59,755 nt of DNA from assembly GCA_944358895.1 (NCBI GenBank), contig CALVSB010000008.1:1-59755 (forward strand), in the 5' to 3' direction. Origin of the DNA: an uncultured Bacilli bacterium. Lineage in GTDB: Bacteria > Bacillota_I > Bacilli_A > RFN20 > CAG-826. A program made the position numbers and the translations under genes. Shown here in pieces: positions 798 to 1,882 of the stretch (within the stretch, counting starts at the first letter, position 1; every line of letters begins with the position of its first letter). Under the pieces are notes generated by a model. The model was given only the letters and a program-made list of their open reading frames with translations. It was not told the origin of the DNA and did no database searches.

Positions 798-1055
798 ATG
801 GCTAACATCAATGTTACGATCCGTATGGATGAACAGCTTAAGGTCCAAGCTGAGGAACTGTTTAGCGATCTCGGGCTTTCTTTAAGTTCTGCCATTACCA
901 TGTTTGCCAAGCAAGCCGTTCGTGAACAGCGCATTCCCTTTGAGATCAAGCGAACAGAACCTAAGATTCAAATGGCAACAGATAGTTCCGTGGAAAAACT
1001 CTCCAACCAGCTCATTGCTAAAAATCGGAAGGCTTATGAGGACTTAGCGAAATGA
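798..1055 (+). CDS. RelB/DinJ-family antitoxin
   Basis: An 85-residue protein with the ribbon-helix-helix start typical of RelB/DinJ antitoxins (NVTIRMDEQLKVQAEELF, then LGLSLSSAITMF and the QRIPFEI motif). It would bind DNA as a dimer and neutralise the toxin with its C-terminal tail. The start is set by AGGAGG at 785-790, seven bases before ATG; an upstream in-frame ATG has no such site. Its stop overlaps the ATG of the next gene (ATGA), so the two are translationally coupled. The partner is a Doc-type toxin rather than RelE/YafQ, which makes this a mixed pair. Base composition is lower in GC than the core genes, suggesting transfer. Confidence 0.88.
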   Translation: MANINVTIRMDEQLKVQAEELFSDLGLSLSSAITMFAKQAVREQRIPFEIKRTEPKIQMATDSSVEKLSNQLIAKNRKAYEDLAK

Positions 1056-1441
1056 TTGTCGTTTCCAAACAGCAAATCATCGCTATGCACCATGCTTTGG
1101 TAATGGAAACAGGCGGTTTGGATGGTTTGCGGGACGAGGGGCTTTTGGATTCGGCTATCGCTGCCCCGTTCCAAACCTTTGATTCAACCGAATTGTTTCA
1201 ATCCGTGCATGAGAAAGCGGCTCGTCTGGCTTGCGGGCTGGTACAAAATCACCCTTTTCTGGATGGCAACAAGCGTATCGGCGCGCACGCAATGCTCGTC
1301 TTCCTCGCATTGAACGGGATTTCCCTTTTCTATACGCAAGATGAACTGGCTTCGGTTTTTCTAAAAACGGCAGCCGGCGAAATTGATTATGACATCCTTT
1401 TGCAATGGGTAATCGACCATGAAGAAAGCGATGGGAATTGA
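1052..1441 (+). CDS. doc: Doc-type toxin (Fic fold)
   Basis: A 129-residue Doc-family protein. The Fic core motif HPFLDGNKR lies at residues 67-75, and the Doc-specific GGxxGLRDxGLLxSAI motif at about 21-36. The known Doc of phage P1 phosphorylates EF-Tu on a threonine and stops translation; the conserved His and motif residues needed for this are all present, so the protein looks active. It overlaps the upstream antitoxin by four bases. Family assignment is firm; substrate is inferred from the family. Confidence 0.9.
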   Translation: MIVVSKQQIIAMHHALVMETGGLDGLRDEGLLDSAIAAPFQTFDSTELFQSVHEKAARLACGLVQNHPFLDGNKRIGAHAMLVFLALNGISLFYTQDELASVFLKTAAGEIDYDILLQWVIDHEESDGN

Positions 1442-1485
1442 CCTCCCCAGTTTTTTCGGGTCTCATAATTTTTCGTATTACTTTT

Positions 1486-1732
1486 GAGCTAAGGTGATCC
1501 TGTACCCCCAAAGGGAGGCGCCAAGCCGCTCGAGAAGGGTATAAAGAACGTGGCCGCGCCACCCGTCCATGAATTTTTGCGGCTTGACCGTTGTACACAT
1601 GATCGGGGCGCGGCCCTCCTTTCACGACCGTTGATCGGTTGCCTGGCGCCAGACGCCTTATCGGCTGCGACGAGACGGCTGGGAGAGCCGGTGCCCATTG
1701 GGGGCGCGGACGGCAAGAAAGGAGCTTTGGAT
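1486..1732 (+). other. structured GC-rich leader, possible cis-regulatory RNA
   Basis: This non-coding stretch has several perfect inverted repeats. CAAGCCGC (1522-1529) pairs with GCGGCTTG (1579-1586), and GGCCGCGCC (1552-1560) pairs with GGCGCGGCC (1607-1615). These two stems interleave, which gives either a pseudoknot or two exclusive folds. Further hairpins are ACCG/CGGT near 1630, CGGCT/AGCCG at about 1676-1690 and GGTGCCC/GGGGGCGC just after. It ends at an AAAGGAG ribosome site and a short ORF. I could not match it to the lysine, M-box, FMN, TPP, SAM or THF aptamer consensus from memory. Confidence 0.4.
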
Positions 1733-1882
1733 ATGGAAGTCAAAGCATTCGCCGTCACCGACGTTGCCGCCTCCCTCGTGCTATTTGCCCGTTTCGAGAA
1801 AAAGAAGCAGCTTCAATGGAAAAACCGCCTGCAAAAAGCCTTTATTTTATGTATTTTTCGTTTGTCATCTCGCCTTTTTTAA
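1733..1882 (+). CDS. short ORF after the structured leader, likely a gene remnant
   Basis: About 49 codons starting at the ATG after AAAGGAG with good spacing. The predicted peptide begins with a mildly hydrophobic stretch (AVTDVAASLVLFARF) and then becomes lysine-rich and ends. The strong ribosome site behind a folded leader suggests this was the start of a regulated gene, perhaps a membrane protein, that was later truncated. No family can be assigned. The 77 bases between it and the next gene hold an A/T-rich GCC...GGC repeat and no other gene. Confidence 0.3.
   Translation: MEVKAFAVTDVAASLVLFARFEKKKQLQWKNRLQKAFILCIFRLSSRLF

What the first reader, a model, noticed from the sequence alone, without database searches (positions are those of the whole stretch)
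1486..1882. Orphan structured leader with interleaved stems before a truncated ORF
Two perfect stems (1522-1529/1579-1586 and 1552-1560/1607-1615) cross each other, and further hairpins follow up to an AAAGGAG site and a 49-codon ORF. Interleaved perfect stems are rare by chance and fit a pseudoknotted cis-regulatory RNA. The downstream gene seems truncated, so this may be a stranded riboswitch. I could not match it to known classes.
Basis: partly seen in the sequence, partly recalled or inferred. Interest (0 to 1): 0.58.

Follow-up and report, generated by a model that had tools for sequence, protein, structure and literature searches.

The report
Stranded guide RNA of a jumping gene
The stretch is the left end of a broken IS110-family jumping gene, carrying the folded "bridge RNA" that would have told its enzyme where to insert; relatives still carry the whole gene, and this lineage's guides appear aimed at the ends of another kind of transposon.

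Summary
The stems, AAAGGAG site and 49-codon ORF are real, but this is not a riboswitch. Window 1474-1732 is the non-coding left end of an IS110-family insertion sequence; the ORF is the stub of its recombinase gene. In a same-genus genome the leader (96% identical) precedes an intact 397-aa recombinase (PF01548, PF02371). A covariance model from 30 relatives, none of the window's subtype, finds window 1553-1692 at 69 bits, E 6.6e-12, its only hit in 59,755 bases. The structure is that of a bridge RNA: target-binding loop, then donor-binding loop; 15 of 16 consensus pairs show compensatory changes. All four guide segments fit their own target or donor better than other elements' (permutation tests across relatives). 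Guides of this subtype fit IS256-family terminal repeats, and 6 of 9 copies sit in one such repeat. New member of a known kind (bridge RNA, 2024); no Rfam match. By-product: relatives whose guides address Shine-Dalgarno sites or -10/start-codon junctions, for which I found no report in the library searched.

The parts
1465..1473 (+). Left target flank (LT, 7 nt) and core dinucleotide TT next to the element
   Evidence: Nine copies of the subtype share sequence only from CGTATTAC (1474) on; ATAATTTTT fits the left guide ATGAATTTT at 7.5 of 9, a score reached at 0.04% of window positions
1474..1732 (+). IS110 left end (LE), non-coding, 259 nt up to the recombinase start codon
   Evidence: Copies and relatives with intact recombinase
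1540..1545 (+). TATAAA, -10-like box of the guide RNA
   Evidence: Aligned with TATAAT-like boxes at the same place in relatives; promoter function inferred
1552..1693 (+). Bridge RNA: target-binding plus donor-binding loop
   Evidence: Model R1, built without any copy of this subtype, matches 1553-1692 at 69 bits, E 6.6e-12; start and end of the real transcript are inferred
1552..1560 (+).
   Evidence: Exact complement of 1607-1615; helix 1 of A2, 100% of cells paired
1569..1577 (+). Left target guide ATGAATTTT
   Evidence: Register as in IS621; cognate left flanks of copies score 8.5 (L004), 7.5 (window), 6.5 (L002, L005), 6.0 (L003) of 9; L010 only 5.0 with its own guide
1580..1590 (+). Stem-loop CGGCTTGACCG inside the target-binding loop
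   Evidence: Helix 3 of A2, all four pairs with compensatory changes
1594..1600 (+). Right target guide TACACAT (predicts AT-GTGTA)
   Evidence: 6 of 7 against the right flanks of L010 and L014; GTGTA is present in uninterrupted IS256-type repeats
1607..1615 (+). 3' arm of the outer stem of the target-binding loop
1612..1619 (+). 5' arm of the donor-binding-loop stem (GGCCCTCC; overlaps the end of the target-loop stem)
   Evidence: Pairs with 1682-1689; predicted in the folds only in part; inferred by analogy with relatives
1633..1643 (+). Left donor guide region GATCGGTTGCC
   Evidence: Identical to that of L010, whose right end reads GGTTGTC; family test n=23, 0 of 20,000 permutations
1645..1657 (+). 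Stem-loop GGCGCCAGACGCC inside the donor-binding loop
   Evidence: Helix 4 of A2, all four pairs with compensatory changes
1667..1674 (+). Right donor guide region GCGACGAG (L010: GCGATGAG)
   Evidence: family test n=29, 0 of 20,000; the window's own score is 4.5 of 6
1682..1689 (+). 3' arm of the donor-binding-loop stem; base 1686 (A) breaks a pair kept in L010 and L002
1718..1724 (+). AAAGGAG, ribosome-binding site of the recombinase gene
   Evidence: same place before the intact gene in L010
1733..1882 (+). 49-codon ORF: stub of the IS110 recombinase gene, homologous only to about 1754-1764
1522..1529 (+).
   Evidence: Upstream of the -10-like box

Best explanation
A decayed copy of an IS110-family insertion sequence. 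Its left end survives whole: target flank and core, element start at 1474, a promoter-like box, and a bridge RNA with target- and donor-binding loops. Its recombinase gene is cut off after about 7-10 codons and the right end is lost. In an intact copy the RNA would bind the recombinase, pair through its first loop with both strands of the target and through its second with the junction of the two ends in the excised circle, and so direct recombination at a core dinucleotide that ends in T. This subtype's guides (AUGAAUUUU; UACACAU) most resemble the conserved part of IS256-family terminal repeats (AATCTT|GTGTAAA and relatives), so IS256 ends are its likely target. Shown here: homology, conserved structure, guide-target and guide-donor matches across relatives, copies lying in an IS256-type repeat. 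Inferred: transcription, recombinase binding, activity, the IS256 preference as a rule.
For: Same leader before an intact PF01548+PF02371 recombinase, similar to the solved ISCro4 and IS621 proteins with the four DEDD residues aligned. Model R1 finds 1553-1692 at E 6.6e-12. Structure in 30 relatives: 96.0% of cells paired, 15 of 16 pairs with double changes, covariation 0.579 against 0.243 in shuffles and at most 0.158 when slid. Permutation tests: left target guide 0 of 20,000 in group A (n=15) and in group B (n=21); right target guide 0 of 20,000 in A (n=16) and 120 of 20,000 in B (n=19); left donor guide 0 of 20,000 (n=23); right donor guide 0 of 20,000 (n=29). Six of nine copies have the left flank GGGAGTAACC..AATCTT, which without insertion continues TTGTGTAA in nine loci of the genus; GTGTA is what the right guide predicts.
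Against: No transcript or protein was measured. Folding energy of the window RNA is ordinary (z -1.00). The window copy has lost its right end, so its right target and donor match cannot be tested. L010's left flank fits its own guide poorly (5.0 of 9), L021 likewise (4.5 of 8). Many A/T-rich sites that are not IS256 ends score as high in the motif scan. The promoter box is inside the left end, not across the junction as in IS621. Donor-guide tests are confounded by relatedness.
Confidence: 0.93

Rival explanations
1. A pseudoknotted cis-regulatory RNA or orphan riboswitch that controls the downstream gene.
For: Two crossing perfect stems, found in 10 of 1000 shuffles; a ribosome-binding site and ORF follow; a third perfect stem, 1616-1623 with 1717-1724, would cover the ribosome-binding site.
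Against: No Rfam aptamer; the RNA goes with IS110 recombinases in relatives; its internal loops vary and match insertion flanks; stem 1 lies partly upstream of the -10-like box.
Confidence: 0.02
2. The window copy is not dead weight: an intact sister copy, not assembled, supplies recombinase in trans and this RNA still guides it.
For: Contigs C14 and C18 stop at the same base inside this left end, as assemblies do at repeats; the RNA differs from that of intact L010 at only 4 positions between 1552 and 1732.
Against: No recombinase match in the 94.5%-complete genome; the window has changes in the right donor guide (1671) and in the donor-loop stem (1686) that L010 and L002 lack.
Confidence: 0.15
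3. The left part (1472-1555) is the end of an IS256 element and the IS110 begins only at 1556.
For: L003 carries this stretch fused to an IS256-type transposase piece; the left flank of several copies is an IS256-type repeat.
Against: Uninterrupted repeats continue TTGTGTAA and part from the inserted copies exactly at CGTATTAC; relatives' left ends begin with the same kind of sequence at the same distance from the RNA.
Confidence: 0.04

Closest known systems
IS621 and its bridge RNA (IS110 group; Durrant et al. 2024, PMC11208160: abstract, sections 5, 6, 7, 12 and part 1 of the extended-data legends read; Hiraizumi et al. 2024, PMC11208158: passages read)
   Same: Recombinase domains PF01548 and PF02371; long non-coding left end before the gene; two internal loops in the order target then donor; left and right guides in each loop; core dinucleotide ending in T; roughly 140-177 nt RNA.
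   Different: Core AT, TT or CT in these relatives, not mainly CT; -10-like box well inside the left end; no separate 5' stem-loop recognised downstream of that box; recombinase about 397 aa with weak similarity to IS621 (8.4e-14); different targets.
ISEc21 and seekRNA (Siddiquee et al. 2024, PMC11187229: abstract, sections 12 and 13 read)
   Same: IS110-type element with upstream non-coding region and guide RNA; its target lies in other insertion sequences (IS3 family), as this subtype's seems to lie in IS256 ends.
   Different: Target there is inside a transposase gene, here a terminal repeat; shorter abundant seekRNA (74 nt) reported there, RNA lengths unknown here.
ISCro4 transposase (PDB 9t56, title only)
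   Same: Closest solved protein by sequence (1.7e-16); DEDD residues align.
   Different: Only 63.8 bits; its RNA and target were not compared.

Membership tests
[quoted passage not shown]
   Intact relative L010: 6.6e-33, D, E, D, D aligned with ISCro4. The window itself keeps only the first codons.
IS110 family element | C-terminal domain PF02371 with conserved catalytic serine | tested here: inconclusive
   Domain met in L010, 9.5e-21; a serine aligns, but I did not verify that it is the catalytic one.
IS110 group (not IS1111) | Left non-coding end longer than the right, RNA in the left end | tested here: met
   L010: 259 nt left of the ATG, about 90 nt right of the stop codon; RNA in the left end.
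Bridge RNA | Conserved RNA with two stem-loops bearing internal loops | tested here: met
Bridge RNA | First loop complementary to both strands of the target around the core | tested here: met
   Across relatives; in the window only the left half can be tested, 7.5 of 9.
Bridge RNA | Second loop complementary to the donor (right end, core, left end) | tested here: met
   Across relatives, with relatedness as a confounder; the window has no right end, and its right donor guide scores 4.5 of 6.
Bridge RNA | Promoter restored across the junction of the two ends in the circle | tested here: inconclusive
   The -10-like box lies inside the left end, 66 nt from its start; no junction was available.
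Bridge RNA | Expressed RNA that binds the recombinase and is needed for recombination | not testable with these tools
   Needs RNA-seq and biochemistry.
Riboswitch or other Rfam family | Score at or above an Rfam gathering threshold | tested here: not met
   Nothing over this region; one chance hit at E<=10.

The most novel reading that the evidence does not exclude
The window RNA belongs to a radiation of Bacilli IS110 elements whose bridge RNAs are programmed to generic landing pads and not to single sites. One clade (B) cuts inside Shine-Dalgarno sequences (AAGG^AGG) upstream of a start codon; another (A) cuts at the junction of a -10 box with an abutting ATG, and its right end places GATAAT-like sequence before that ATG; the window's subtype, close to A, has moved to the ends of IS256-family transposons. 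Such sites occur throughout the host and may cost it little, since the element re-supplies part of the signal.
Probability: 0.6. Interest if true: 0.7.

Novelty: new member of a known kind. Interest (0 to 1): 0.48.

Why it matters
It shows that an unexplained structured leader with no Rfam match is the relic of an RNA-guided recombination system, and gives a covariance model that finds such RNAs in 53 of 279 genomes of the order. The set includes near-identical elements whose guides differ and mostly match different sites, a natural record of retargeting. If the gene-start targeting of the relatives holds, it makes testable how RNA-guided mobile elements choose sites that spare the host.

Tried and rejected
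(1) I first placed the left end of the IS110 at 1556 and read 1472-1555 as an IS256 left end, because L003 carries that stretch fused to an IS256 transposase piece. Dropped when relatives showed the same kind of element start (TTCGTATTAY) and uninterrupted IS256-type repeats parted from the copies exactly at CGTATTAC. (2) T-box and lysine-riboswitch resemblances, recalled while reading, have no support. (3) Viral-contig scans for the recombinase and for a 20-base leader word found nothing. (4) genome contigs gave only two records, those of G029 and G121. (5) Folding energy was not informative (the reverse strand, z -2.13, was not pursued). (6) The query for the 49-codon ORF began at 1734, one base out of frame (the ATG is at 1733), so its lack of a hit, and that row of alignment A1, say nothing.

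Limits of the tests. Element ends were set by regular expressions written after looking at the sequences, L026 by hand; the right-end patterns require AT before G, or CT (TC or AC in two forms), so the first bases of the right target are partly fixed by definition. Of the 60 rows the tests used n = 15, 21, 16, 19, 23 and 29; rows without a recognised end, and duplicates in the donor tests, were left out. Scores take the best offset, for cognate and non-cognate pairs alike. Donor-guide tests are confounded by relatedness; left-target tests within near-identical elements are much less so. The group A left-target test set L010 and L014 aside; they fit poorly (about 5 of 9; L010, L014 by eye). Alignment A2 used 30 of the 50 aligned sequences: it omits the window, L002, L010, similar sequences and the divergent L095, L100-L102, L104, L105.

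Full report
What was claimed and what is there. The stems, the AAAGGAG site and the 49-codon ORF exist as described.

Identity. The stretch is repeated: window 1472-1754 is 97% identical to a second copy in the same genome (L002), and shorter pieces occur on contigs C17, C18 and C14. In a same-genus genome (G029; named record CALVUI010000004.1, 'uncultured Bacilli bacterium') the copy L010 matches window 1540-1764 at 96%, and there the leader is followed by an intact 397-aa ORF that matches PF01548 and PF02371 and the solved ISCro4 and IS621 proteins. The window ORF shares only its start: identity to L010 and L002 collapses after 1754. So the 'truncated gene' is an IS110 recombinase stub and the 'leader' is the element's left end.

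Left boundary. Nine copies of this subtype share their sequence from CGTATTAC onward (window 1474), while the window, L004 and L010 differ from the other six to the left of it. My first placement of the boundary at 1556 was wrong (see Tried and rejected).

The RNA. 43 of 279 genomes of the order encode relatives of the recombinase at E<=1e-30. Their upstream regions align with the window's. On 30 of them, with no window, L002 or L010, the consensus structure has 16 pairs in four helices: 96.0% of cells pair, 15 pairs have changes on both sides, and the covariation score is 0.579 against 0.243 for shuffles and 0.158 at most when partners are slid. A model of that alignment finds the window at 1553-1692 with 69 bits, E 6.6e-12, and nothing else in the window at E<=10; in the whole genome it finds this copy and L002 only, and in the order 53 of 279 genomes at E<=1e-6. 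The anatomy matches the published bridge RNA: a target-binding loop (outer stem, left guide, stem-loop, right guide), then a donor-binding loop (PMC11208160 sections 6 and 7; PMC11208158 passages). The 5' arm of stem 1 lies upstream of the TATAAA box.

Guides. Elements with a recognised end give a direct test: does the guide fit its own flank better than other elements' flanks? Left target guide: group A cognate mean 6.97 of 8 against 5.79 (n=15), group B 6.40 against 5.58 (n=21), 0 of 20,000 permutations each. Right target guide: A 6.06 of 7 against 5.19 (n=16, 0 of 20,000), B 5.66 against 5.29 (n=19, 120 of 20,000). Left donor guide: 6.50 of 7 against 5.90 (n=23, 0 of 20,000). Right donor guide: 5.34 of 6 against 4.43 (n=29, 0 of 20,000). 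L016-L023 are closely related elements (the five compared in one orientation share 88-97% protein identity) with different left guides that mostly match different flanks; L021 is a clear exception (4.5 of 8). L026 shows a 13-nt identity between guide and flank (read). Confounders are listed in Tried and rejected.

Target of this subtype. The left guide reads AUGAAUUUU and the right guide predicts AT-GTGTA. Six of nine copies have the left flank GGGAGTAACC..AATCTT. Without an insertion that sequence occurs in the genus as a repeat continuing TTGTGTAA in nine loci (L063, L064, L066, L068, L069, L071, L073, L076, L077), with a partner GAGAGTGT.CGGAATCTTGTGTAAA in L066, L068 and L077, as expected of IS256-type terminal repeats. 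The predicted right half GTGTA is present in them, although no copy in that repeat kept its right junction. IS256-family relatives on viral contigs, fetched by transposase similarity, end in AATAATTTT|GTGTAAA and AAATATTTT|GTGTAAA; the first scores 12.0 of 14 in a scan of all loci held, where 29 of 1,019,692 overlapping positions reach 12. Against: many A/T-rich sites that are not IS256 ends score as high, L010's flank fits poorly, and the window's right side is gone. I put IS256 ends as the target at about 0.7.

State of the window copy. Between 1552 and 1732 it differs from intact L010 at 1571, 1578, 1671 and 1686; 1671 lies in the right donor guide and 1686 in the donor-loop stem, where L002 still agrees with L010. 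No recombinase domain was found in the genome (no protein match at 1e-30 either), but contigs C14 and C18 end at one base inside this left end, so an unassembled intact copy is possible. L002 and L003 fuse the IS110 left end to later parts of an IS256-type transposase gene, as expected if deletions followed insertion into an IS256 end.

By-product. In group B the empty site, read toward the neighbouring gene, is typically AAGG^AGG-n-ATG: an SD-like tetramer spans the cut in 15 of 19 elements with both sides known, against 3.6% of 139 control windows, and 19 of 22 have a start codon within about 20 nt that opens an ORF of at least 98 aa or open to the end of the sequence (one starts at GTG and one at TTG). 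Elements from other families of the class look the same by eye. In group A the right flank begins with ATG; among 18 with at least 100 nt of flank, 14 have an ORF of 150 aa or more, or one open to the end; L010, L014, L019 and L022 do not. The left flank holds a TATAAT-like box (at least 5 of 6) in 13 of 15, against 22% of 115 control windows; L020's best box is close to the core, where it does not fit the usual spacing. Searches of the PMC library for IS110 or bridge RNA with Shine-Dalgarno, ribosome binding site, start codon, leaderless or IS256 listed no paper that reports this by title or start of abstract; in the two I opened (passages only) IS110 and Shine-Dalgarno are unrelated. Subscription papers and preprints were not searched.

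Verdict. A new member of a known kind: the bridge-RNA-bearing left end of a decayed IS110 element in an uncultured Bacilli genome.

Noticed in passing
L030-L042, L081-L104 (group B IS110 relatives); also L110-L122: IS110 elements inserted inside the Shine-Dalgarno sequence of a neighbouring gene (AAGG^AGG-n-ATG), with right guides that carry AAGGAGG-like sequence; 15 of 19 against 3.6% of control windows.
   Followed up: partly
L015-L028, L078-L096 (group A IS110 relatives): IS110 elements inserted between a -10-like box and an abutting ATG of a gene; the right end brings GATAAT-like sequence to about the same distance from that ATG.
   Followed up: partly
window 1616-1623 / 1717-1724: A third perfect 8-bp stem pairs CTCCTTTC of the donor-loop region with GAAAGGAG at the recombinase's ribosome-binding site; it might hide that site in a read-through transcript.
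   Followed up: no
window 798-1441: RelB-type antitoxin and Fic/Doc-type toxin genes, overlapping by a few bases (Pfam), end 32 bases left of the IS110 left end.
   Followed up: no
L002 and L003 (G000 contigs C5 and C17): IS110 left-end sequence fused at different points to the 3' part of an IS256-type transposase gene.
   Followed up: partly
G000 contigs C14 (right end, L005) and C18 (left end, L004): Both contigs stop at the same base inside the IS110 left end, which suggests unassembled copies.
   Followed up: no
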